DNA from: Chloroflexota bacterium
GTDB taxonomy: Bacteria > Chloroflexota > UBA11872 > VXOZ01
Direction of reading: 5' to 3'
DNA: 64,000 nucleotides
NCBI GenBank assembly: GCA_026710945.1
Contig: JAPOQA010000007.1
Span: 1 to 64,000 of the forward strand
Within the stretch, counting starts at the first letter, position 1, and every line of letters starts with the position of its first letter. The position numbers and the translations under genes are program-made. The notes beneath the pieces are model-generated. The model made no database searches, was not told where the DNA came from, and was given only the letters and a program-made list of their open reading frames with translations. Positions 9,164 through 21,386 of the stretch are shown in pieces.

Positions 9164-10048
9164 GTGGCCCAAACAACTGAATTCTATAGCCAGATTCGCA
9201 ACTACGTGGCATTGACCAAGCCACGGATCATTTCATTGCTATTGGTTACTGCTTTGGGCGGCATGTTTCTCGCGAGCAATGGCGTACCGCACTGGATCCT
9301 AATTGTGGTTGTACTGAGTGGCGGTGCTCTCGGCTCTGGGGGTGCCAACGCGCTGAACCACTACATGGATCGAGACATCGATGAGCAGATGGCGCGCACC
9401 AGAAATCGGCCCATTGCCAGGGGAGCGATCAAGCCTCAGAACGCGCTTCTCTTTGGTGTGGCGCTCAATATTGCCGCCTTTGTACTCTTATTCACATTTG
9501 CCAACCTCCTGAGTGCGCTCCTGACGCTGGGCGCGACAATCTTCTACGTTTTTATTTACACCGGACTCCTAAAGCGCGCGACGCCGCAGAACATCGTCAT
9601 CGGAGGCGCTGCCGGCGCGATTCCGCCGATGGTGGGCTGGGCGGCGGTCACAGGAGATCTTGGCCTGCCGGCGTTCTTTCTCTTTGCCTTGATTTTCTTT
9701 TGGACGCCGCCACATTTCTGGGCCTTAGCACTCCTACTCAAGGATGACTACGCGAGTGCAGGGGTCCCCATGCTGCCAGTTGTTGCCGGTGTTGACAAGA
9801 CGAAGAAGCAAATCTTCCTCTATACGCTCCTCGTCGCCGCCCTCGCCATTGCGTTCTTCGCCACAGGGGAGTTGAGTGTTGTCTATTTAATTGCCGCGGT
9901 CATGCTTGGCGCCGGTTTCATTTATTGCGCTTGGCAGCTTTGGAATCAGCCGGACATAGTAAAGGCCAAGCCAATGTACCTTTACTCGCTGGCTTACCTT
10001 GCGCTATTGTTCCTTGCCATCATGGTTGATAGCTTGTTGCCTTTGTAG
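9164..10048 (+). CDS. ctaB: protoheme IX farnesyltransferase (heme O synthase)
   Basis: The protein is 294 aa, a polytopic UbiA-superfamily prenyltransferase. It attaches farnesyl diphosphate to heme B to make heme O for heme-copper terminal oxidases and acts in the cytoplasmic membrane. The first Asp-rich motif is NHYMDRDIDEQMARTRNRP (about 66-84). The second conserved loop includes the DDYASAGVPMLPVVAGVDKTK region (about 192-212). Around eight to nine hydrophobic helices are present. The start is a GTG at 9164. No cytochrome oxidase genes are adjacent, which is unusual for ctaB; they must lie elsewhere. Confidence 0.95.
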   Translation: MAQTTEFYSQIRNYVALTKPRIISLLLVTALGGMFLASNGVPHWILIVVVLSGGALGSGGANALNHYMDRDIDEQMARTRNRPIARGAIKPQNALLFGVALNIAAFVLLFTFANLLSALLTLGATIFYVFIYTGLLKRATPQNIVIGGAAGAIPPMVGWAAVTGDLGLPAFFLFALIFFWTPPHFWALALLLKDDYASAGVPMLPVVAGVDKTKKQIFLYTLLVAALAIAFFATGELSVVYLIAAVMLGAGFIYCAWQLWNQPDIVKAKPMYLYSLAYLALLFLAIMVDSLLPL

Positions 10049-10408
10049 CCCGCTGAGCGCGGGAGGCTTACAGAGTCTCGCTGGAGATTTAGACTTTGTC
10101 GCCGCATCACTGTAAGGGAGACTGACGAATTTGAAGTTTCGGGAAATTCCCCGCTTGCGACTATTCCCGGCGAGACTATGCCCGCTGCATTTTGATTCTA
10201 CATGCGCCAGTCGAGGGCGCTCCGGCAGCAAGTTTGTGTTCACTCTGTCCGCCGTGGCGGATAGAGTTTCCTGACACGTGTTCAAACAAGGGTTCTGCGT
10301 CGTATATTCTTGAAGAACTGTGGAAACTACCACTTCGCTCGCATAGTGGAATTTGACGCGGTCGTTGACCGGCTGCGCCGCGCGTTGGTACACTGGAATC
10401 GTCCGCAT
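10049..10408. other. 360-bp intergenic region upstream of tRNA-Asn
   Basis: Nothing coding is seen. A small GC hairpin (CCCGC-TGAGC-GCGGG) lies just after the ctaB stop but lacks a T-tract, so a terminator role is weak. The rest presumably carries the tRNA promoter. Confidence 0.45.
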
Positions 10409-10480
10409 TCCGCGGTAGCTCAATGGTAGAGCAGGCGGCTGTTAACCGTCTGGTTCGAGGTTCGAGTCCTCGCCGCGGAG
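10409..10480 (+). tRNA. tRNA-Asn (anticodon GTT)
   Basis: Folding by hand gives a 7-bp acceptor stem TCCGCGG/CCGCGGA (10409-10415 with 10473-10479) and a D arm GCTC/GAGC. The anticodon stem is GGCGG/CCGTC with loop CTGTTAA, so the anticodon GTT lies at 10441-10443. A TTCGAGT-type T loop and discriminator G follow at 10480. The 3' CCA is encoded at 10481-10483. All invariant positions look intact. Confidence 0.97.
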
Positions 10481-10530
10481 CCATAATTCTAATCACAGAT
10501 TTATTCCTTTCTTAGTGGTGCGTTTGGTAT

Positions 10531-11265
10531 ATGAACCTAGAGCAGCAACTGCGTACGCAGTGGACCAAGCACGCGCAAGATTGGGTGCAACAGGACCAGT
10601 CAGTCCGCACCGGCATGCTCGACACATGGATGCTTGGGGCGCTGGGAGATGTCGCCGGTCGTCGCGTGCTGGACGTCGGCTGTGGCGAAGGGCGGTTTTG
10701 CCGAGTCCTGGCCGCACTTGGCGCGAATGTCACCGGAATTGACCTCACCGAGCCCCTCATCGCGCAAGCGCGCGCGGCGGCGAGACTCACTGAATCCTAT
10801 TCGATCGAAAACGCCGAAGACCTTGCAGGTATAGACGATGAGAGTTTCGATCTCGCCGTCTCATACATTGTGCTTGTCGACGTGCAAGACTATGCACGGT
10901 CGGTCCGGGCCGCGTTTCGAGTCTTGAGGCCTGGAGGCCGCTTCATTGTGTGTAACGTACACCCGATGCGTATGGCGCAGCCCGACGGCTGGATTAGACA
11001 TGGTGACCGGAAGCTCTTTTATGCAATTGACAACTATACTGCCGAAGGGCCTCGGGAGTTCGAATGGTGGGGCGCGCCGTTCATCAACATGCACCGGACG
11101 CTCTCCAGCTACATCTCAGCCTTCTTGGAGGCGGGATTCGTGCTACTGTCCCTGCTGGAACCAACCCCTTCAGACGAACAGCTTGCCGCGAATCCCGAGT
11201 TCGCCGATGAATACCGCGTACCGAATTTCATCATCTATGAATTGCAGAAGCCTGAGCTCAAATAG
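10531..11265 (+). CDS. class I SAM-dependent methyltransferase
   Basis: The protein is 244 aa with a Rossmann-like methyltransferase fold. Motif I is VLDVGCGEGRFCRVL (46-60), a GIDLTEPLIAQAR acidic loop follows, then the LAVSYIVLVDVQD motif IV region and ALRVLRPGGRF-type motif VI (here FRVLRPGGRFIVCNVHP). This is the UbiG/BioC-like small-molecule group, and the substrate cannot be assigned. It starts 48 bp after the tRNA and ends about 270 bp before the promoter of the peptide/exporter locus on the same strand. It might be a tailoring enzyme for that peptide, but distance and the separate promoter make this uncertain. Confidence 0.85.
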   Translation: MNLEQQLRTQWTKHAQDWVQQDQSVRTGMLDTWMLGALGDVAGRRVLDVGCGEGRFCRVLAALGANVTGIDLTEPLIAQARAAARLTESYSIENAEDLAGIDDESFDLAVSYIVLVDVQDYARSVRAAFRVLRPGGRFIVCNVHPMRMAQPDGWIRHGDRKLFYAIDNYTAEGPREFEWWGAPFINMHRTLSSYISAFLEAGFVLLSLLEPTPSDEQLAANPEFADEYRVPNFIIYELQKPELK

Positions 11266-11536
11266 GTCTGTGAGATCAGCGGCAAGTTGTCAACAGAGCG
11301 CAGGCGTTGTTCACAATCTCAAGGTGGCCGTCACATTGAGTGAAGCTAGCTCCTGGAGCACTGCGCGCACTCATCACTTCCCAACTAGCCTCCAGAATAG
11401 TGCGCTCGCTTCGCCTTAAACCCATCGCACCCAAGTTACTCGAGTCACACAGCAATTTTGGACGGGCCCGGTGCTTTTCCACCTCCTAGACGAGTACAGA
11501 GGTACATGACAATCACAGGTAGACTGTGTAACAGGC

Positions 11537-11565
11537 TTGACGAGTAGCTAAGTGTGCTATAACAT
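11537..11565 (+). promoter_or_regulatory. candidate sigma-70-type promoter for the secreted-peptide gene
   Basis: TTGACG at 11537-11542 matches the -35 consensus at five of six bases. A -10-like TATAAC begins at 11558 (15-bp spacer), and overlapping TAACAT begins at 11560 (17-bp spacer). A transcript starting near 11572 would carry an untranslated leader of about 245 nt ahead of the peptide gene. Confidence 0.45.
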
Positions 11566-11571
11566 ACGGTT

Positions 11572-11816
11572 GCGGTCGAAGATGATCGTCCCTAACGTCA
11601 ACACCGGGAGACATTTAGAGATGCCAAAGGAGGTTACTCTACCAACGATTCTCTTGAGCAGCCGCCTTTGACTTGGATGCTTGTGAGACTTTGTGGTGAT
11701 GTGGTGTTGCATCGGCGAGAATTTGCCCTGAGGCGCTTTGGCGCAACATGGGACATCAGTAACTGTCGGTTAGGGTGCTGAGGACTTTGTAAAGCGTTTG
11801 TGCGGAGGAATCCAAA
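11572..11816 (+). other. long 5' leader of the peptide gene with two tiny open frames
   Basis: The leader contains a 16-codon frame at 11621-11671 (ATG to TGA, starting MPKEVTLP; GGGAG lies upstream). A second frame follows from ATG 11677, about 34 codons, ending LGC before TGA. Neither is recognisable. They could be leader peptides, a decayed gene or chance. The peptide gene itself starts at 11817 after GTGCGGAGGA, which is a good ribosome binding site. Confidence 0.3.
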
Positions 11817-12011
11817 ATGAGTAAAGAGAAGTCTGTTTCCACTGAGGAAGCCGTGGCTGCCGAAGCGGAACAAGTGGAACCTTCCAGTGGCGAATTGACC
11901 GAGGACGAGATGGACGATGCCGTAGGCGGAGTCGGGGCCGGCGATGACCAGGGTCCGCAGGATACCGACGACAGGTCCGGTAACGGTTGGTGGAACGATC
12001 CAAACTCGTAG
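11817..12011 (+). CDS. candidate double-glycine leader precursor peptide of the NHLM exporter
   Basis: The peptide is 64 aa. Residues 1-38 form an acidic leader ending in ELTEDEMDDAVGG (26-38), which fits the helical LxxxEL(D/E)xVxGG leader cut by C39 peptidases. The expected mature part is residues 39-64: 26 aa, rich in Asp, Gly and Asn, with a WW pair at 58-59 and an NDPNS end. It has no Cys, one Thr and two Ser, so lanthionine, thiopeptide or sactipeptide chemistry is unlikely. The start is supported by GGAGGA 8 nt upstream. A strong terminator follows the stop, and the matching exporter (fusion protein, peptidase ABC, second ABC) begins 520 bp downstream. Function, modification state and target are unknown. 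The assignment rests on the leader motif plus context. Confidence 0.75.
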   Translation: MSKEKSVSTEEAVAAEAEQVEPSSGELTEDEMDDAVGGVGAGDDQGPQDTDDRSGNGWWNDPNS

Positions 12012-12034
12012 ACTCTTCTTTAGCTAATGCATGT

Positions 12035-12080
12035 CAGGTACGATGGGCCCTGTCAATGGTCCATCGTACCTGTTTTTCTT
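12035..12080 (+). terminator. strong rho-independent terminator after the peptide gene
   Basis: CAGGTACGATGG (12035-12046) pairs perfectly with CCATCGTACCTG (12061-12072). The pairing can be extended by a wobble and two GC pairs, leaving a loop of about 8 nt, and TTTTTCTT follows at once. It lies 24 nt past the peptide stop and would make a short monocistronic mRNA. Confidence 0.9.
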
Positions 12081-12121
12081 GTTCAGGTGTCTGGCCATTG
12101 CTTGGTTCGTCTTAAGTGGGA

Positions 12122-12235
12122 ATGCCACTGCTTCGGCTTCGTGCCGCCGGCCAGTTGTGGGCAAGGCATCCGTGGGGCGAAGACCGTGACGCTTCCAGCG
12201 TAGAGGTGCTGGTCAAGAGTAGTCGCAGCGGCTAA
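12122..12235 (+). CDS. small open frame of 37 codons between peptide terminator and exporter (doubtful)
   Basis: ATG at 12122 to TAA at 12233. The product starts MPLLRLRAAGQLWARHPWGE and ends KSSRSG. The only ribosome-binding-like sequence is a GGGA abutting the ATG. No family is recognised and there is no double-glycine motif. It is listed because it is the only small frame with reasonable codon composition in this otherwise empty 450-bp interval; it may be chance. Confidence 0.15.
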   Translation: MPLLRLRAAGQLWARHPWGEDRDASSVEVLVKSSRSG

Positions 12236-12329
12236 TTCAGAACAGCGCATGGGGCGCTACTTGGCACCAGCCGTATCAGGGCGCACCGGCTTATTGCACG
12301 TTCAGCGACCATTCCCCGATTCGTTCTAG

Positions 12330-12371
12330 AGCCCGCTGCTGTTGCATCTATTCAGGCAACAGCAGCGGGCT
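12330..12371. terminator. 16-bp perfect hairpin upstream of the exporter genes
   Basis: AGCCCGCTGCTGTTGC (12330-12345) pairs without mismatch with GCAACAGCAGCGGGCT (12356-12371) around a 10-nt loop. No T-tract follows on either strand. It may be an mRNA stabiliser, attenuator element or protein-binding site rather than a classic terminator. The rest of 12081-12533 shows nothing else I can support. Confidence 0.5.
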
Positions 12372-12533
12372 AAACGTTGGCCTCTTCCTCACCTGATAAT
12401 CTGAGATTGGGCTCGATCCTGCAAGGCGCGCCGGGGATACACAGGGAGTGTGTTCTCGTCATTTCAATTAGCTCTGGCATTGCGATAGAATAGCCTTCAA
12501 CCGGGAATAGCCCTATCTGGAACGCTTGGAGCA

Positions 12534-13427
12534 GTGACGTTGACGAACAAGCAGCGTCTCTTTCGCGAGGAAGCCTTTGCGCGCAGAGGGAAAACGGAGC
12601 CCCTCAACGGCCTATTGCGTGTTACGGCGCCCCACGAATGGCTCTTGTTGGTCTGCCTGGGTTTTGCCATGCTGGGGTTTGTAGCTTGGGGCCTCTTCGG
12701 CAGCATTGAAGAGAGTGTCTCGGCACGATGCGTGCTCGCGCAAGCCGGCGACCGCTTTGTCGTGAACGCAGAATCCTCCGGCACTGTCGTCGAACTCCTC
12801 GTAGGCGTTGGCGATAGAGTGGAAGCAGGGCAGCCAATTGCCCGGCTCCGAATTCCCGAGCTCGGGCGCGAGATCTCAATTGCCCGCTCCCGGGTTGAGA
12901 TGCTGGAGAGTGCGGACGAAAAGCCTCCCGATGCCCTCGATGCGGCCCGTGCGGAGTTGATCGAGCTGGAAGCACTCGAGGCGGCCGGTCAGTTCCTTGC
13001 AACACCCTTTGCCGGTGTCATTGCGGCCGTTAGCTTGTCGCTCGGACAGGCGGTAGCGGCTGGCGCCACAGTGGCAAATGTCCGAGTTGATGCTGGGAAT
13101 GAGCTTGAGGCGATCGCAATGGTGTTGCCGGAGAATGCGAGGCGTCTTGCGGTCGGCATGGAAGCGCAGGTCCTGGCTTTGACCCAAAACCAGTTAGGTG
13201 CGGATGCGCTGGAAGCTGAGGTGAGCTACGTTTCGGCGCAAGCGGTCACACCTCCCCATTGGCTCGCAGCTCTCGGACTTCCCGCCCTGCCACGCGGCCA
13301 CATGGTTAGCTTGACCCTGAACGAGAGGCTTTCCTCTCCCTTGGCGGACGGATATCCGTGCGAGATGCGGATCATCCTGCGTAAGGTTTCACCGGCACGC
13401 CTCCTAATCTCGCTCGGTACCAATTGA
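12534..13427 (+). CDS. HlyD-like membrane-fusion protein of NHLM peptide export system
   Basis: The protein is 297 aa. An N-terminal cytoplasmic tail (about 1-38) is followed by one membrane helix (WLLLVCLGFAMLGFVAWGLF, about 39-58), then a lipoyl/barrel-sandwich hybrid region starting VVNAESSGTVVELLVGVGDRVEAGQPIARL. A short coiled segment and a C-terminal beta-barrel follow. The size and architecture match the 'NHLM bacteriocin system secretion protein' family, a shortened HlyD that links paired ABC transporters. The GTG at 12534 lies only 2 nt after GGAG, and the in-frame TTG at 12540 is better spaced, so the true start may be 12540. The stop overlaps the next gene's TTG, so the two are translationally coupled. 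Confidence 0.85.
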   Translation: MTLTNKQRLFREEAFARRGKTEPLNGLLRVTAPHEWLLLVCLGFAMLGFVAWGLFGSIEESVSARCVLAQAGDRFVVNAESSGTVVELLVGVGDRVEAGQPIARLRIPELGREISIARSRVEMLESADEKPPDALDAARAELIELEALEAAGQFLATPFAGVIAAVSLSLGQAVAAGATVANVRVDAGNELEAIAMVLPENARRLAVGMEAQVLALTQNQLGADALEAEVSYVSAQAVTPPHWLAALGLPALPRGHMVSLTLNERLSSPLADGYPCEMRIILRKVSPARLLISLGTN

Positions 13428-15637
13428 GGCGGCTGGAGAAGATGCCTGCAAGCCAAACGAAGTCAACTGCGAGAAAACGCGTACACACGCCACTGTTCCC
13501 TCAGCTTGAGACATCCGAGTGCGGTGCTGCCTGTTTGGGCATTTTGCTTGCTCACTTCGGCCGCTGGGTACCCATCGAAGAACTGCGCGACGCGTGTGGA
13601 GTGAGCCGAGACGGCACGAGCGCCGCGGACATCGTGAGAGCCGCCAGGAAGTTCGATTTAGAAGTCTCAGGCTGGCGCAAACAGGTCAGCGAATTGCAAG
13701 ACATAGCGTTGCCTGCAATTCTCTTCTGGGATTTCAATCACTTCTTGGTTCTTGAAGGGATAGCCAAAGGACGATTCTACCTAAATGACCCGGCCAATGG
13801 CCGTCGCACCGTGAGTGAAGAGACACTCGACCGGTCTTTCACCGGCGTGGTGCTCACGGCGAAGCCGGGGCCAAACTTTCGTACGGGGGGTTCTCCGCCC
13901 GGCGTCGTGCGCGAGCTTTGGCACTGGTTACGTGACGTTAGGTCGCCGCTCGCGTTTGTCGCCGCGTGCGGGATCCTGCTGGCGTCACCCGGTCTCTCTC
14001 TCCCCATCCTCTTGAGCATATTTGTCGACTATGTCCTGCGTGGATCGGAGAGAAATTGGGGTGTGTTCCTTGTAGCCGCCGCCGTTGCGACCGGTGTGCT
14101 GGTATACCTCCTCACTTGGCTCCAGCAACACTCGCTGCGCAGACTCTCTATTCGATTATCGGTAGTTCATGCGGAGCGCATGCTGTCGCGTCTCTTCCGT
14201 CTACCCGTAGGTTTTTTTGCGCACCGCTATGCCGGAGACCTAACATCCCGCGTTCAGTTGATCAATGAAGTTGCCAGCGGCTCGTCGCGGCAGTTCGTCG
14301 GCATCATGATCGAGCTCGTTATGAGTGGCCTCTTCTTGGTGTTGATGGTTTTCTTCGATCCGTTGCTGGCCGCGCTCATTGCAGGCTTGGGAATTGCGAA
14401 CCTTGTTCTCATGCGCATTCTCAGCCGCCTGCGCACCGACGAGAATCGCCAGTTGCGGCGCGAACAGGCATTACTCTTTGGTACCGGATCGTCGGTTGTA
14501 CGCGACATTGAGACGCTGCGCGCAACAGCTTCGGAGGATGACTTCTTCGCTCGCTGGACGGGATATCAAGCCCGGGAGCTCGTCGCTCGGCAGAAATTCG
14601 CAGAACTCGGCTCCATAATTGCATCGCTCCCAAGGTTCTTCTTAGTCCTGAGCGGCGTAACAGTCTTGGGCGTCGGCGGTTGGCAAGTCATGTCAGGCGA
14701 AATGACAATTGGCATGCTAATGGGATTCTATGTGGTTTCAGGCAGTTTCCTTCAGCCCATAAGCCGGTTCGTTCAGTTTACGGACGCCTTTCAGATTCTG
14801 GAGGCAGATCTGCGGCGCATCAACGACGTTCTAGACACGCCTGAAGACCCTGCGCTTGCAGAGTCAACCAATTCTGAACGCGGCAGAGTCTCCACCTTGG
14901 GAGGGCGCTTGCGTTTAACAGGGAGCATCGAGTTGCGCAATGTCACGTTTGGCTATCGTCCCAATCGTCCGCCGCTCATAGAGAACATCAACCTAACTAT
15001 TGCACCCGGCCAGCGGGTAGCATTGGTCGGCCCCACCGGTTCCGGCAAGTCGACGCTGCTTAAGCTGGTTAGCGGCGAATACACACCGTGGTCGGGTGAA
15101 ATACGCTTTGACGGGGTGCCCCGCAACCAAATCTCCCGCGAGATACTCACTCGTTCGGTCTCAATCGTCGATCAGCAGACTTTTCTGTTTGCTGCGTCAG
15201 TGCGTGACAATCTTACGATGTGGAACCCAACTGCGCTTGACGAACAGGTGGTCGCCGCTGCTCAGGACGCTTTAATTCACAGCGAGATCATGAGCCGCCA
15301 GTCCGGCTATGACTCTAATGTGGAAGAAGGGGGCACGAATTTCAGCGGCGGTCAACGCCAACGCATGGAGATCGCTCGTGCCCTAGTGGACAACCCTTCA
15401 GTGCTGTTTCTGGATGAAGCTACCAGTACGCTCGACGCAGTGAGCGAGATGCGCATCGATCACAATCTACGGCGGCGTGGATGTACCAGCTTGATCGTTG
15501 CCCACCGTCTGAGCACTATCCGCGATTGCGATCAGATAGTTGTGCTCGATCGCGGTCAGGAGATTCAGCGGGGTACCCACGAGGAACTCATCGCTGCAGA
15601 GACAGGCTTGTACTACAAGCTAATTCAGGCGCAGTAG
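13424..15637 (+). CDS. NHLM-type ABC transporter with N-terminal C39 peptidase
   Basis: The protein is 737 aa. Residues 25-150 are a C39 leader peptidase: SECGAAC with catalytic Cys33, NHFLVL with His106, and DPANG with Asp122. A six-helix exporter domain follows (about 165-460), then an ATPase with GPTGSGKST, SGGQRQRMEIARAL and VLFLDEATST. It should cut peptides after a double glycine and export the product through the inner membrane, fitting the 64-aa peptide upstream. The TTG start at 13424 overlaps the preceding stop (TTGA), and an ATG at 13442 is an alternative with a close GGAG. All catalytic residues are present, so the exporter looks functional. Confidence 0.93.
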   Translation: MRRLEKMPASQTKSTARKRVHTPLFPQLETSECGAACLGILLAHFGRWVPIEELRDACGVSRDGTSAADIVRAARKFDLEVSGWRKQVSELQDIALPAILFWDFNHFLVLEGIAKGRFYLNDPANGRRTVSEETLDRSFTGVVLTAKPGPNFRTGGSPPGVVRELWHWLRDVRSPLAFVAACGILLASPGLSLPILLSIFVDYVLRGSERNWGVFLVAAAVATGVLVYLLTWLQQHSLRRLSIRLSVVHAERMLSRLFRLPVGFFAHRYAGDLTSRVQLINEVASGSSRQFVGIMIELVMSGLFLVLMVFFDPLLAALIAGLGIANLVLMRILSRLRTDENRQLRREQALLFGTGSSVVRDIETLRATASEDDFFARWTGYQARELVARQKFAELGSIIASLPRFFLVLSGVTVLGVGGWQVMSGEMTIGMLMGFYVVSGSFLQPISRFVQFTDAFQILEADLRRINDVLDTPEDPALAESTNSERGRVSTLGGRLRLTGSIELRNVTFGYRPNRPPLIENINLTIAPGQRVALVGPTGSGKSTLLKLVSGEYTPWSGEIRFDGVPRNQISREILTRSVSIVDQQTFLFAASVRDNLTMWNPTALDEQVVAAAQDALIHSEIMSRQSGYDSNVEEGGTNFSGGQRQRMEIARALVDNPSVLFLDEATSTLDAVSEMRIDHNLRRRGCTSLIVAHRLSTIRDCDQIVVLDRGQEIQRGTHEELIAAETGLYYKLIQAQ

Positions 15638-15668
15638 CCGTGTATGCCTTGCATCAGAAGAGCAACTC

Positions 15669-18584
15669 ATGACATCGAGACGATTCCAACGGCTCGGCGA
15701 GCTCGCAATTGAGCTCGGTGAATCAGTGTCCGTCGCCGGTAATCGCCCCATCCGCTTGGATGATCCCGAGATCGCCTGGTTCGTCGAGAGCGGCGTGCTC
15801 GATGTATTTCTTGTCGAGTACCAAGGACAAGAGCAGTCATCTCACGCCAAACACCTGCTGCGCGCCGGTGAAGGCCGTCTAGTGTTTGGAGTTGGAGAGA
15901 GCGGACCATTGGTTCCAGTCGCCAAGGGCATGCCGGATTGCCGGCTGCGTCGCGTCGTGCTGAGTGAATTGCTGAAATACGAAATTGCAGAGCAACTGTC
16001 CGGGCAGGTCGATGCTTGGCTCACGGAGTTCGCAGCCGCCGTGGCAAAGGTAATTGAGCCGCGTCCCCGTCCCGATGTGCTGTTTGACCCCAAGAGTCCG
16101 GAAGACTCGCTGGACGCCGCGGTCGGCAGCGTTCTATCCGCCCGGCCGGGCGGGGTAGTGTGGGTCGACGTCGGCAGCGTCGATGCAGCATTCTTAGGCA
16201 CCGAAGAGCGAGATCCGGAAGGCACCGGTTTCGTCCCGCTCACTGCAGAGACGTGGATCACATTGCAAAGCACGAATCGAATAACCGGTTTGACCTCACG
16301 GGCGATGTTCGATGAAGGCGCACTGTTGCCTTCCCTCGCGGAATTCCACAAGCTCGCCCTCGGCGCTGAGCAAATCAATCGCCTTCTCCTGATAGCTGAC
16401 GAGGCAAACGAGCAGACGGCCCGTTCCATCTACCGTCGTCGGGACGAGGAACGCGCCAGACACGACCTCTTTAGCGTGCTCGGATCCTCCGCACCGACGA
16501 CCGCCACTGGTGATTCCGGTCTGTTGGCGGTGCTTGAAGTGATCGGCAAGCACGAAGGCATTGAATTTCGCCTTCCGGCGCGACGACGGGTCACGGTTGA
16601 TGAAGAACTAACCCTGCAAGAAATTCTGCATACATCAGGTGTGCGCAGCCGCAAGGTGCATCTTTCTGTCGAAGACCGGTGGTGGGTAGGAGACAGCGGG
16701 GCCATGCTGGGATACCGGCAAGAAGACGGTCGCCCGGTAGCCCTGCTGCCTCGCATGAACGGCCGCTACCGCGAGGTAGACCCGGTTGCGGGGCGGACGG
16801 ACCGCCTAAACGCAAGACGGGCAAGCGCTATGCATGAGGACGCATGGCTATTCTACCGGCCTCTGCCGCATGATAGACCGGCGGAATCAAAGGATGTCAT
16901 TAGCCTTGCCACTAAAGGCATGGCCAATGATCTTGCGCAGTTCGCGGTTACGGGCATTCTCGCCAGCCTTCTGGTGCTTGCTCCCGCGCTAGCGTTTGGG
17001 TTGCTGGCGGATTGGATTCTTCCGGCAGCCGTAGGCAGCATGCTAGCTCAGATAGTCATCGCATTGACTGCTCTTGCCATTGTGGGCACGCTGCTTCAAG
17101 TCCTGCGCGGTACCGCCATGATGCGTCTTGAAGGCCGGGCCGCGGCACGCCTGGGTGCAGCACTTTGGGACCGCTTGATTGGACTTCCGACAAGCTTCTT
17201 CAGAGATTTTACTGCTGGAGAGCTAGCAGTGCGGATGTCGGCGGTGCAAGTGCTGCGGGATCAGGTCTCGGGGGTTGTTGCTCATGCCCTTACTTCGTTT
17301 TTGTTTCTGCTGCCGATGCTTGCCCTGCTCTTTCTCTACGACGCCGCCCTGGCCTGGCTGAGTCTCGGGATCGGGCTCGTCTCCTTAACCGCAACCTGTG
17401 CTATTGGCTTGTTGCAGATTCAACCCCAACGCCGCTTCTGCGCCGCATCGCGGCATCTCGCCGGGGAGCTCTTCCAATTCATCAATGGCATCAGCAAATT
17501 GCGTTCTGCGGGCGCGGAATCGTCGGCTTTCGCCTCGTGGGCGCGCGGCTACCGAGAGCAGCAACTCGCCCAGTTGCAAATCAGCAAGCTGAACGAACAC
17601 CTGGTTGCATTCAGCGCCGCCATGCCGGCCTTCACAGGCGCAGCCCTCTTCGGGGCCGCACTTTGGAGGGGGCCCGACCAACTGGCCTTAGGGAGCTTCC
17701 TCGTCGTCTATGCAGTATCCATTACGCTCTATGCGTCGATCATCGGGCTGGGTTACTCGCTCGAAGCCATTGCCGCAGTGGTGCCGGTATACGAACAGAT
17801 TAAGCCGATTCTCGCTGCGGTCCCGGATAGCCGCCCGGCGCCGGCCGCCCCGGCGGAACTGAGCGGTGACATACGCTTCGATCACGTGAGTTTTCAGTAC
17901 ACCAAGGATGGGCCTCAAATCATCGATGATGTTTCAATTCACGCCCGTCCCGGCGAATTCATCGCGATCGTCGGCGAGTCCGGTGCGGGCAAGAGCACCT
18001 TGTTGCGGCTTGCTTTGGGTCTTGAAGAACCCTCTGCAGGAGGCATCTACTTCGACGGCCGCGACCTAACGAATCTCGATCGCAGGTCGGTTGGGCGCCA
18101 GACCGGCGTCGTGACGCAGGACGGCTCCCTCAAGCCCGGCAATTTGCTCGACAACATCATCGGCATTGGCGATGACTTGACGTTAGATGATGCCTGGCGG
18201 GCAGCCAAGCTCGCCGCCGTGGACTGCGACATTACCGAAATGCCAATGCAGATGTTTACCGCCGTGGGCGACAGTTCCTCGACATTCTCCGGCGGGCAGG
18301 TGCAACGCATCAGGATCGCGGCGGCGCTCGTACGCAACCCACGCATCGTGTTCCTCGATGAAGCCACCAGTTGGCTCGACGCGAATAGCCAGGCCCAGGT
18401 TATGGAGGGAATTGAGAGCCTTGCCGCTACCCGCATCGTAATTGCCCACCGGCTCTCCACCATCCGCAAAGCCCAGCGCATCTATGTAATTCACCAGGGA
18501 CGCGTCGTCCAGGAAGGCAGCTTCATTGCGCTCTACCAGATGGAAGGGCCATTCCGCGACCTGGTGCAGCGGCAGATGACGTGA
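15669..18584 (+). CDS. second NHLM-type ABC transporter (no peptidase)
   Basis: The protein is 971 aa and fits the long 'NHLM bacteriocin system ABC transporter, ATP-binding protein' family. A soluble N-terminal region of about 400 residues, with a cyclic-nucleotide-binding-like start, replaces a peptidase. It precedes a six-helix exporter domain (about 415-715) and an ATPase (GESGAGKST, FSGGQVQRIRIAAAL, IVFLDEATSWLD). It probably forms a heterodimer with the peptidase ABC encoded 31 bp upstream. The ATG at 15669 has only a weak GAAGAGCAA upstream. All nucleotide-binding motifs are intact. What the N-terminal domain does is not known. Confidence 0.9.
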   Translation: MTSRRFQRLGELAIELGESVSVAGNRPIRLDDPEIAWFVESGVLDVFLVEYQGQEQSSHAKHLLRAGEGRLVFGVGESGPLVPVAKGMPDCRLRRVVLSELLKYEIAEQLSGQVDAWLTEFAAAVAKVIEPRPRPDVLFDPKSPEDSLDAAVGSVLSARPGGVVWVDVGSVDAAFLGTEERDPEGTGFVPLTAETWITLQSTNRITGLTSRAMFDEGALLPSLAEFHKLALGAEQINRLLLIADEANEQTARSIYRRRDEERARHDLFSVLGSSAPTTATGDSGLLAVLEVIGKHEGIEFRLPARRRVTVDEELTLQEILHTSGVRSRKVHLSVEDRWWVGDSGAMLGYRQEDGRPVALLPRMNGRYREVDPVAGRTDRLNARRASAMHEDAWLFYRPLPHDRPAESKDVISLATKGMANDLAQFAVTGILASLLVLAPALAFGLLADWILPAAVGSMLAQIVIALTALAIVGTLLQVLRGTAMMRLEGRAAARLGAALWDRLIGLPTSFFRDFTAGELAVRMSAVQVLRDQVSGVVAHALTSFLFLLPMLALLFLYDAALAWLSLGIGLVSLTATCAIGLLQIQPQRRFCAASRHLAGELFQFINGISKLRSAGAESSAFASWARGYREQQLAQLQISKLNEHLVAFSAAMPAFTGAALFGAALWRGPDQLALGSFLVVYAVSITLYASIIGLGYSLEAIAAVVPVYEQIKPILAAVPDSRPAPAAPAELSGDIRFDHVSFQYTKDGPQIIDDVSIHARPGEFIAIVGESGAGKSTLLRLALGLEEPSAGGIYFDGRDLTNLDRRSVGRQTGVVTQDGSLKPGNLLDNIIGIGDDLTLDDAWRAAKLAAVDCDITEMPMQMFTAVGDSSSTFSGGQVQRIRIAAALVRNPRIVFLDEATSWLDANSQAQVMEGIESLAATRIVIAHRLSTIRKAQRIYVIHQGRVVQEGSFIALYQMEGPFRDLVQRQMT

Positions 18585-18713
18585 GTTAACACGCCGACAC
18601 GCCCGTTCACCCCGGCTCCCCTCCACAGGAAGAGGGGTTTCTGATACGGACTTAGGGCCTGTCCTAAAGATGAGATTCTTGCTACACTGGTTTTACGGAT
18701 ACAACACAGGCTC

Positions 18714-19439
18714 TTACTCTTTTTCCACCATCCGGCACGCCGGAAAGCCCTCACACCCCCAGAACCGCTTCCCCGCAAACTGTCCCCTTCGCGCCGTTCG
18801 CAGCACCATCTTTTGACCACAGCGTGGGCACCACCGCGTGGCCGATGGGCTTTCATTCTCCAAGCTCCGGATATGCCGCCGACTCGTCCTCCACGATGGC
18901 TCCATTCGCCTAGACTCGATCAATTCACAGATCATCGCTACCTGCGCTACTGACAGTGCACGATGCCTGAACGAACGTATATACCGAGAACCACCCAATC
19001 CCACCGTCACGTTCTCTGGCAATTCCCGCTTCAACTGCGCATTGCCTACGAATACCACAACAGACCTTACGACCCCTCTCGGTAACCCGTTGCTTGCAAG
19101 AGCTTCTTCTAACGCGCGAACGTGCCCGTAATTCTGTCGCAGAGGGTTCAGAAACTTGTACTTCTTCCCGCTCCGAAAGACCTGCATCCACTCTCGATCT
19201 CGCTCGCTGCCGTAAATCCACCCCACCATGTTCTTCGTCTCCACCACGAACACGCCAAACGCTGACACGAACACATGATCGATCTGCGTCGTTCCGCGGG
19301 GAGTCTGCAGCGTCACATTGTGATATTTTCGGTAATCCGACGATGGCAGTGTCAGCGCGGCCCCAACTTCTACCAGCTTCTCACCCCAAATTCCCTTAAC
19401 CGACGCCTTGAACGTCGACCAGAGCATCTTTAGCTGCAC
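18714..19439 (-). CDS. NERD-domain protein with topoisomerase-type zinc finger
   Basis: The protein is 241 aa. The N-terminal NERD domain (about 15-135) has GIWGEKLVE, the TQIDHVFVSAFGVFVVETKNM core with the Asp and the ExK of the nuclease-like fold, and a following VVVFVG strand. The C terminus has WCPRCGQKMVLRTARRG and FWGCEGFPACR, a four-Cys topoisomerase-DNA-binding zinc ribbon (about 202-235). NERD proteins are thought to be nucleases or nucleic-acid-processing proteins. It is transcribed toward the exporter genes (convergent), so it is unlikely to be part of that operon. Start is ATG at 19439. Confidence 0.88.
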   Translation of the reverse strand: MQLKMLWSTFKASVKGIWGEKLVEVGAALTLPSSDYRKYHNVTLQTPRGTTQIDHVFVSAFGVFVVETKNMVGWIYGSERDREWMQVFRSGKKYKFLNPLRQNYGHVRALEEALASNGLPRGVVRSVVVFVGNAQLKRELPENVTVGLGGSRYIRSFRHRALSVAQVAMICELIESRRMEPSWRTSRRHIRSLENESPSATRWCPRCGQKMVLRTARRGQFAGKRFWGCEGFPACRMVEKE

Positions 19440-19550
19440 TCCTTGTCTTGCAATTTCACCTCAATGCCACTGTTGCTCGCCACGCCACCACTACCCTCAT
19501 CCAAAGCACAGCGCAGTCAACAGCAATGCTGAAGGCTCTTCACAGGGAGC

Positions 19551-21386
19551 CTACACAATTGACATGAGACACAGGGTGCGTGGTGTTGTGGTGGTCAGGT
19601 CGATCGTGACCGCGCGCTGGCGACGACTTTCCAAAGTAACTTGCTGGATTGGCAAGGCCGCGCCGGTGCTCTTGTCCTGCACAGACGCAACGTTGTCAGG
19701 CAGCATGAGTGACAGTCCTGAAATGTCCGCGCTGGATTCGAGCGTGATGAAGTGGGTATTGCCCTGGGAATATGACTCAGTCAAGCGTACGCCTGCACGC
19801 GCCCGCGAAAAGCTGGAGAAGTTCTCTTGGTTTTCAAAGCGGCAGCCGGCCGCAATCGCCCCTTCCATGCCCAACTCCAAGGCGTGGCGGGAGGCTCTGA
19901 CGTGGTCTTGAGGCCCGGCGGCGTAGACGGGATGGAAGTTTGCGATCTGCATCACGTGCCAGCGTGTGGCCGCGGATTCGGCAAAGCGCGCGAGCTCCAC
20001 GCCATACTCTTCTGAGGTGAGACCTACCATGCCTTCGACCCGATCGGGTGTTGCTGCCATGGGGCCGGCCAACAGGTCCTCGTGCCGCCCAATGGTCTGG
20101 CTTTCGTCCCATTGCGCGGGCATGTGCCACATATCCGTAATACCAACGCCGTGCTGGAAGTATGGCATGCACAAACCGGTGCCGATCATGTAGGGGCCGT
20201 AGTTCTCTTCGCGCCGCATGCGGGGATCGTGGGAGGCGAAGTGTGTGGGTGTGTACCAGCCAAAGTCCAGCATGATCTGCAACAGCGGGTGGCCGGTCCA
20301 CTGACAGCCGTGGCTGCAAATGGTCTCCACGTCCAGGCCGGTCTCGCGCCGAAACACGTCCCATGATTCTTGCAGGTTCGCGCGGAGCGCGGGCAGGTAG
20401 TTTTCGTTCAGGTCTTCCGGCGTGCGGCCGTAACGCACCTGCGTGCCGTTTTCCTGCACGGCGTATTGCGTGATGCTCGTAAGGTCCACTTCTATGGAAA
20501 CGGCATGCCCGCGCGCGTGCCATTCTTTCATCAGGTCGCCCTCGTAGCGGCTGAAGGGCGCCCGGTAGAAGGTGAGCAACGCGCCATACGACTCCACAAT
20601 GTCTATTAACACGGGCGCGCCATTCTCGCCGCAGCCGTCGCCCTTGATGAACCACAAGGCCGGAGCCGCTTCGGGGAAGTACCAGAGACGCGGCAATGGC
20701 GTGGCGGACAGTGCTTCCGCCACTAGAGTGCGCAGGATGTCTTGATGAACGTCCGCCACGGGGATATCGCGGGTAGTTTTCTCGGAAAGCTCGAAGAAGC
20801 TGTAGAGATGGCGCGGACCCTTTAGCGGTCCCATGTCCTGCAGGGGTCGCTCGTGCAGGTCTCCGTCACCGTGCCGAAAGGTGACGACGGCCTGGCAGAG
20901 GTCATAGCCGTAGAGCCACGCCTTGCCTTCACCTAGCCGCACTTCCGCGATGCCCGCGCCGAGGAGTCCGCCGTCGGCATCCCGCAACTCAGCGACAGTC
21001 TCGCCGCCGCTCAAAGTCCGTGAAATGGCATCCGGGCAGAGCAGGGGCAGGCTCCCGTGTTCCCATTGGGGGAGTTGCCGTACCGTGAGCCACGCATCCG
21101 TTACTTGCTCTCCTGCCGTGACGCCAAGGGCGGTCAGCAGAGCGGGATCGGGAGCCAGGGCAATGAGAGATGTGCCACCTGCTACTGCGGCAGCGAGGCG
21201 CTCCGCGGTCTCGTTACCCATGCCGCTGCCTGCGACAACGATGAGTTCGACATCCGGCGGCGCGTCTACGAATGATGCCGCAGATTTCGCCTCCAGCCAG
21301 GGAAAACCCTCGCAGCGGAGGATCTCGGCACTTAAGGGCGTGGTGAGCGCATGGTCGGCATGCAGGAGCAAGATCGGCTGATTCAT
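19551..21386 (-). CDS. large protein with amidotransferase-like and deacetylase-like regions
   Basis: The protein is 611 aa with no signal peptide. Residues 1-185 resemble a class I glutamine-amidotransferase/ThuA-like Rossmann domain (VELIVVAGSGMGNE), without an obvious nucleophile cysteine. Residues about 235-480 look like a polysaccharide-deacetylase (NodB-like) barrel: ALWFIKGDGCGENG at the first metal motif, then ICSHGCQWTGH. A beta-rich tail of about 100 residues closes the protein. The DD of classic NodB motifs is replaced by KGD, so chemistry may differ. It is the last gene of a minus-strand cluster with a C45 hydrolase, 10 bp after that gene's stop. Function is not assigned. Confidence 0.65.
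   Translation of the reverse strand: MNQPILLLHADHALTTPLSAEILRCEGFPWLEAKSAASFVDAPPDVELIVVAGSGMGNETAERLAAAVAGGTSLIALAPDPALLTALGVTAGEQVTDAWLTVRQLPQWEHGSLPLLCPDAISRTLSGGETVAELRDADGGLLGAGIAEVRLGEGKAWLYGYDLCQAVVTFRHGDGDLHERPLQDMGPLKGPRHLYSFFELSEKTTRDIPVADVHQDILRTLVAEALSATPLPRLWYFPEAAPALWFIKGDGCGENGAPVLIDIVESYGALLTFYRAPFSRYEGDLMKEWHARGHAVSIEVDLTSITQYAVQENGTQVRYGRTPEDLNENYLPALRANLQESWDVFRRETGLDVETICSHGCQWTGHPLLQIMLDFGWYTPTHFASHDPRMRREENYGPYMIGTGLCMPYFQHGVGITDMWHMPAQWDESQTIGRHEDLLAGPMAATPDRVEGMVGLTSEEYGVELARFAESAATRWHVMQIANFHPVYAAGPQDHVRASRHALELGMEGAIAAGCRFENQENFSSFSRARAGVRLTESYSQGNTHFITLESSADISGLSLMLPDNVASVQDKSTGAALPIQQVTLESRRQRAVTIDLTTTTPRTLCLMSIV

What the first reader, a model, noticed from the sequence alone, without database searches (positions are those of the whole stretch)
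11817..18584. NHLM exporter with an orphan acidic, cysteine-free precursor peptide
A complete NHLM secretion set with intact C39 catalytic residues sits beside a 64-aa peptide whose leader ends ELTEDEMDDAVGG. The predicted 26-aa product is rich in Asp, Gly and Asn, carries a Trp pair and has no Cys. No lanthipeptide synthetase, radical SAM, YcaO or nitrile hydratase-type gene is near. This may be an unmodified secreted peptide or an unknown modification class; the only nearby tailoring candidate is the methyltransferase at 10531.
Basis: partly seen in the sequence, partly recalled or inferred. Interest (0 to 1): 0.75.

Follow-up and report, generated by a model that had tools for sequence, protein, structure and literature searches.

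The report
Exported short acidic peptide with exporter
A Chloroflexota genome carries a small self-contained gene unit that makes a 64-residue peptide, which a dedicated exporter most likely cuts to a 26-residue acidic product and releases; all six sequenced members of its genus keep it, and no chemistry-adding enzyme of five tested types was found in any of them.

Summary
Confirmed: a complete NHLM-type exporter (HlyD, C39-ABC, ABC) with intact catalytic residues sits beside a 64-aa double-glycine precursor. The peptide is a real gene. It occurs beside the exporter in 6/6 genomes of the genus, shows purifying selection (dN/dS about 0.2 where estimable) and has an invariant WWxDP near its C-terminus. 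It has its own Shine-Dalgarno, promoter, conserved upstream dyad and a terminator in every genome, so it is a separate transcription unit. The leader is not NHLP or Nif11 type. Exporters linked to such short, Cys-free, hydrophilic precursors fall in one supported clade (99/98) spanning Chloroflexota and Actinomycetota. Other exporters of the wider group use NHLP leaders, often beside an unannotated gene that models as an ABBA-type prenyltransferase. The window genus lacks that gene, and also lacks YcaO, LanC-like, Trp-halogenase and over-cutoff SPASM radical-SAM genes. The methyltransferase is not linked: it occurs without the exporter and stays put when the cassette is inverted. Best explanation: a ribosomal peptide cleaved after Gly38 and exported, most likely unmodified, acting as a secreted signal or class II microcin-like peptide. 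The activity is unknown, and modification in trans is not excluded.

The parts
11537..11565 (+). Sigma-70-like promoter TTGACG-N17-TAACAT
   Evidence: Only promoter-like match in 11250-12650; hexamers and 17-nt spacer kept in G001, G002, G003 and G004, unclear in G005
11572..11589 (.). Conserved dyad (consensus GCGATCA-N4-TGATCGT), probable operator just downstream of the promoter
   Evidence: Best-conserved stretch of the upstream region in six genomes; the strict pattern was found only in loci that hold this cassette, among 169 loci; one arm is degenerate in the window copy
11804..11809 (+). Shine-Dalgarno GGAGGA, fixing ATG 11817 as start
   Evidence: Located; aligned SD-like sequence in relatives
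11817..11930 (+). Precursor leader, 38 aa, ends ELTEDEMDDAVGG; non-NHLP, non-Nif11
   Evidence: no NCBIfam or Pfam family; canonical double-glycine pattern
11931..12008 (+). Predicted product VGAGDDQGPQDTDDRSGNGWWNDPNS, 26 aa, average mass 2760.7, Cys-free, 6 acidic and 1 basic residue
   Evidence: core length is 26 in all six genomes; WW and DP invariant
12035..12082 (+). Intrinsic terminator directly after the precursor
   Evidence: 15-bp stem plus T-run; stem-loop just after the stop in 6/6 genomes, with different stem sequences in G003 and G005
12534..13427 (+). HlyD-type adaptor without coiled-coil hairpin (297 aa)
   Evidence: TIGR03794 100 bits, below cut-off; alignment
13424..15637 (+). 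NHLM exporter subunit 1: C39 peptidase-ABC; C39 domain about 13493-13873
   Evidence: TIGR03796 911.7 bits, PF03412; catalytic residues
15669..18584 (+). NHLM exporter subunit 2: ABC permease/ATPase
   Evidence: TIGR03797 733 bits

Best explanation
The locus is a two-transcription-unit peptide secretion cassette. A regulated promoter with an operator-like dyad drives a monocistronic precursor gene that stops at its own terminator. The exporter genes follow as a second unit. The C39 domain recognises the short acidic double-glycine leader and cuts after Gly38, and the ABC1/ABC2/HlyD complex exports the 26-residue, disordered, acidic, Cys-free peptide. The product is most likely not enzymatically modified and acts outside the cell, more likely as a signal or other secreted ligand recognised through the invariant WWxDP end than as a membrane-disrupting bacteriocin. 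Shown: gene reality, conservation, linkage, intact catalytic residues, and absence of five tailoring families. Inferred: cleavage, export, lack of modification, and activity.
For: 6/6 genus genomes keep precursor plus exporter (in G001 the contig ends inside ABC1). dN/dS about 0.2 overall and about 0.1 at the leader end where estimable. Own promoter, dyad, SD and terminator. Only one C39-ABC exporter in the genome: the second C39 hit is a 427-aa non-ABC ORF. No second leader relative. No YcaO, LanC-like, Trp halogenase, over-cutoff SPASM radical SAM or c2 prenyltransferase-like gene in six genomes. Exporters linked to analogous short-leader Cys-free precursors (L048, L051, L056, L065) fall in the same supported clade, and no shared tailoring gene recurs beside them. 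Net negative, very hydrophilic cores in the genus (GRAVY -1.25 to -1.78) argue against pore formation.
Against: Tailoring can be in trans: in the related genome G016 the exporter (C18) and the prenyltransferase-like gene (C2) lie on different contigs. P450s, MNIO/DUF692, ATP-grasp ligases, 2OG oxygenases, isoprenyl-synthase-type peptide prenyltransferases and glycosyltransferases were not tested genome-wide. An invariant Trp pair is a plausible modification target. Position -4 is Ala in the whole genus, weaker than the usual Val/Ile/Met. Two other clade members (L049, L050) have no precursor found nearby. G004's C39-ABC carries a frameshift. No receptor, immunity gene or activity was identified.
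Confidence: 0.62

Rival explanations
1. A true RiPP whose tailoring enzyme is encoded in trans and acts on the conserved Trp-Trp or acidic residues (for example prenylation, oxidation or macrocyclisation).
For: Other exporters of the wider group use NHLP precursors with short Trp/Tyr cores beside an ABBA-prenyltransferase-like gene. In G016 that gene is unlinked to the exporter. WW is invariant.
Against: c2, YcaO, LanC-like, Trp halogenase and over-cutoff SPASM radical-SAM genes are absent in the genus. The leader lacks the structured NHLP/Nif11 domain that modifying enzymes often bind (general knowledge).
Confidence: 0.23
2. A class II microcin or bacteriocin: an unmodified antibacterial peptide with a linked immunity function.
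For: Double-glycine leader, C39 exporter and no tailoring gene match the class II architecture.
Against: Core is only 26 aa, acidic and very hydrophilic, unlike typical cationic or amphipathic bacteriocins. No convincing immunity ORF was recognised next to the precursor. No sign of diversifying selection in the core.
Confidence: 0.12
3. The methyltransferase at 10531 modifies the peptide.
For: Lies next to the precursor in the window and in G001, G002 and G004; near the exporter's other end in G003 and G005.
Against: Orthologues at 68% identity in G026 and G027 without an NHLM-grade exporter. The cassette inverts independently of it. Other members of the exporter clade show no such neighbour.
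Confidence: 0.03

Closest known systems
NHLM export system (TIGR03794/TIGR03796/TIGR03797; Haft et al. 2010, PMC2887384)
   Same: Three-gene HlyD/C39-ABC/ABC exporter next to a double-glycine precursor; ABC1 and ABC2 pass the curated cut-offs.
   Different: Precursor leader is not NHLP or Nif11; HlyD lacks the hairpin and misses the cut-off; no TOMM, LanM or radical-SAM partner.
Class II (unmodified) bacteriocins and microcins, TIGR01847-type leader
   Same: Short leader with the L-x3-E-L/M-x4-GG double-glycine pattern, C39 exporter, no tailoring gene found.
   Different: 26-aa acidic Cys-free core; two-ABC NHLM exporter rather than a single C39-ABC transporter; no immunity gene seen.
Streptococcal double-glycine pheromones (ComC/BlpC type; reviewed in PMC7595303)
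   Same: Short unmodified peptide cut at GG and exported by a C39-ABC transporter; regulated peptide gene.
   Different: No sensor kinase recognised adjacent; different phylum and exporter type.
Proteusins / NHLP peptides of sponge symbionts (srp and others; PMC9426513)
   Same: Double-glycine precursors predicted in MAGs of marine sponge-associated bacteria, as in the wider exporter group here.
   Different: Window precursor has no NHLP domain and no tailoring enzymes of the tested classes.

Membership tests
NHLM export system | C39-containing ABC1 (TIGR03796) above cut-off | tested here: met
   911.7 bits vs 853.3
NHLM export system | ABC2 (TIGR03797) above cut-off | tested here: met
   733 bits vs 709.4
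NHLM export system | HlyD (TIGR03794) above cut-off | tested here: not met
   100 vs 156.2 bits; best-matching family all the same; hairpin missing, as also in L047 and L054
NHLP / Nif11 precursor families | TIGR03793, TIGR03798 or NHase-alpha leader domain | tested here: not met
   No NCBIfam or Pfam family at E<=0.001; NHLP-like hits elsewhere in the genome are a CTPCSC-bearing NHase-type protein
Lanthipeptide, TOMM, sactipeptide/ranthipeptide, brominated proteusin | LanC-like, YcaO, SPASM radical SAM or Trp halogenase present | tested here: not met
   Absent or below cut-off in six genomes
Prenylated NHLP peptides (c2-type) | c2 ABBA-prenyltransferase-like gene in genome | tested here: not met
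   No match in G000-G005
Class II microcin/bacteriocin | Double-glycine leader plus C39 exporter | tested here: met
Class II microcin/bacteriocin | No post-translational modification | tested here: inconclusive
   Five tailoring families absent or below cut-off; others not tested
Class II microcin/bacteriocin | Immunity gene adjacent | tested here: inconclusive
   No convincing conserved ORF in the alignment of the precursor region
Class II microcin/bacteriocin | Antibacterial activity | not testable with these tools
   Needs bioassay
Double-glycine pheromone | Cognate sensor kinase or receptor | tested here: inconclusive
   None among the neighbouring genes scanned; receptor could be unlinked

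The most novel reading that the evidence does not exclude
A lineage of NHLM exporters moved from structured NHLP leaders to short double-glycine leaders and now exports acidic Cys-free peptides with a conserved Trp-Trp-x-Asp-Pro end. These form a new class of secreted signal (between bacteria or toward a host) with a modification chemistry not among the known RiPP classes, or with none.
Probability: 0.2. Interest if true: 0.8.

Novelty: new variant of a known kind. Interest (0 to 1): 0.55.

Why it matters
NHLM exporters were defined by their link to NHLP/Nif11 precursors of heavily modified peptides (PMC2887384). This clade shows the exporter with short, apparently unmodified, acidic peptides across Chloroflexota and Actinomycetota. 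It gives a directly testable case (one synthesised 26-mer of known mass) of what these exporters secrete in uncultured marine bacteria, and warns that an NHLM exporter alone does not imply a modified product.

Tried and rejected
1. Methyltransferase as tailoring enzyme: rejected. 2. A 'true' NHLP precursor elsewhere: hits turned out to be a CTPCSC-bearing NHase/thiocyanate-hydrolase-type protein in G000 and G005; the second G002 place (C24) was not resolved further. 3. Second C39 hit (C21): a 427-aa ORF without ABC domains. 4. Class-wide profile search outside the genus gave only weak leader hits; the best, in G007, lies near a c2 gene. 5. Rfam on 10000-19600 gave only a tRNA. 6. Plasmid collection: no homologue. 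7. Precursors for L049, L050 and L120 not found; L122 ends at the contig edge. 9. Graspetide idea (acidic core): no ATP-grasp recognised nearby and no conserved core motif; not tested genome-wide. 10. L055 (68% identical exporter, similar precursor) was left out of the tree by the script's coverage filter.

Full report
What is there. The window lies at the start of contig C7 of a 3.52-Mb, 70-contig genome. ABC1 and ABC2 pass the curated NHLM cut-offs; HlyD does not. Catalytic residues of the C39 domain (Gln27, Cys33, His106, Asp122) and the ATPase motifs are intact.

The peptide is a gene. All six genomes of the GTDB family (one genus) have it beside the exporter (in G001 the contig ends inside ABC1). 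The alignment shows invariant VE...GE.TEDE...AVGG, Q.P, WW and DP, with a 26-aa core every time. Divergence is concentrated at third codon positions (0.25/0.16/0.45) and dN/dS is about 0.1-0.3 where dS is not saturated, lowest at the leader end. A strict leader pattern occurs once in 64 kb, here. In 867 kb of loci it hits 19 times, nearly all near exporters, against 3 in the reversed control and 0 in triplet shuffles.

It is its own transcription unit. Upstream lie TTGACG-N17-TAACAT at 11537-11565 and a dyad (consensus GCGATCA-N4-TGATCGT), which is the best-conserved upstream DNA. The strict dyad pattern occurred only in loci holding this cassette. GGAGGA precedes ATG 11817. A strong stem-loop follows the stop codon in all six genomes, with different stem sequences in G003 and G005. 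Separate high expression of the peptide relative to its exporter is the natural reading (inference).

The cassette is mobile relative to its flanks. In G003 and G005 it is inverted with respect to neighbouring genes, while the methyltransferase stays with its own flank. The methyltransferase has 68% orthologues in G026 and G027, where no exporter reaches NHLM scores. It is therefore a neighbour, not a partner.

Is there a tailoring enzyme or another precursor? Across the six genomes there is no YcaO, LanC-like or Trp-halogenase match, and no SPASM radical SAM over cut-off. The NHLP-profile hits in the genus trace to a protein with the CTPCSC metal-site motif of nitrile hydratase/thiocyanate hydrolase, not a precursor. 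The only other C39 hit is not an ABC exporter.

Relatives. A genome-collection scan and class-level search gave exporters at about 35-80% identity, many from marine MAGs (several bin names match, from memory, a reef-sponge MAG set). Searching around them found short-leader, Cys-free hydrophilic precursors in L048, L051, L055, L056 (two or three) and L065 (two). On the ABC1 tree the window genus, L048, L051, L056 and L065 fall in one clade (99/98, 12 rows), together with L049 and L050 (no precursor found) and L122 (contig edge). Other exporters of the wider group have NHLP leaders with very short Trp/Tyr cores (L047, L052, L060, L076) or CCC-containing cores (L057, L087, L121).

Side finding. 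Seven loci carry a recurrent neighbour (c2) without Pfam or NCBIfam assignment. Its model (pLDDT 86.7, pTM 0.88) matches ABBA/DMATS aromatic prenyltransferases (best E 1.2e-5, TM about 0.5). NHLP peptides with these short Trp/Tyr cores are therefore predicted to be prenylated. Known NHLP-linked Trp prenylation by PalQ uses a different fold (isoprene-synthase superfamily, PMC10853753). The window genus lacks c2. In G016 c2 is on another contig than the exporter, which shows why modification in trans cannot be excluded for the window peptide.

Mechanism. Best reading: regulated expression, C39 cleavage after Gly38, NHLM export of an unmodified 26-mer with a conserved WWxDP recognition end. Gene reality, linkage, conservation and absence of five tailoring families are shown; cleavage, export, lack of modification and activity are inferred. 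The acidic hydrophilic core favours a ligand or signal over a pore-former. The short HlyD without hairpin suggests export without a TolC-type outer-membrane duct (inference).

Known or new. It works like a class II double-glycine peptide system but uses an NHLM exporter. It fails the NHLP/Nif11 precursor test and the tested RiPP-enzyme tests. I file it as a new variant of a known kind.

Noticed in passing
L047:13163-14233(-), L052:13927-15048(-), L053:11585-12703(-), L054:15812-16909(-), L060:15034-16230(+), L076:4650-5711(-), L087:499-1713(+): Unannotated protein family (no Pfam/NCBIfam) recurring beside NHLM exporters with NHLP precursors; predicted structure matches ABBA/DMATS aromatic prenyltransferases. 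Possible new peptide Trp/Tyr prenyltransferases; a FAD-binding oxidase gene accompanies three of them.
   Followed up: partly
L052:15038-15628, L053:12666-13283, L076:18-1049, L047:14230-14802, L060:6047-6310 and 13296-13652: NHLP-leader precursors with cores of only about 6-13 residues (VDVYPV, IDYDPNIS, VDVNWDTVNIS, GQYLWE, FGAFWG), often several per locus.
   Followed up: partly
L057:6728-6982, L087:6458-6790, L121:601-972: NHLP-type precursors ending in CCC cores (AGWCCCGN, AGLCCCGL, AGLCCCW) with a separate exporter clade.
   Followed up: no
L042:13200-13720 (G004): The C39-ABC gene of G004 changes frame before the Walker B motif; either an assembly error or a recently broken exporter.
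   Followed up: no
L043 and L044 versus window 4000-25000: The precursor-exporter cassette is inverted relative to conserved flanking genes in two of six genomes.
   Followed up: partly
window 11600-11800: About 230-nt 5' leader between promoter and start with a conserved AAGGAGGTTAC not followed by an obvious start codon; purpose unknown.
   Followed up: no
G000:C14:105924-106301: Nitrile-hydratase/thiocyanate-hydrolase-type subunit (CTPCSC motif) that scores sub-threshold with the NHLP leader model in the genus.
   Followed up: yes
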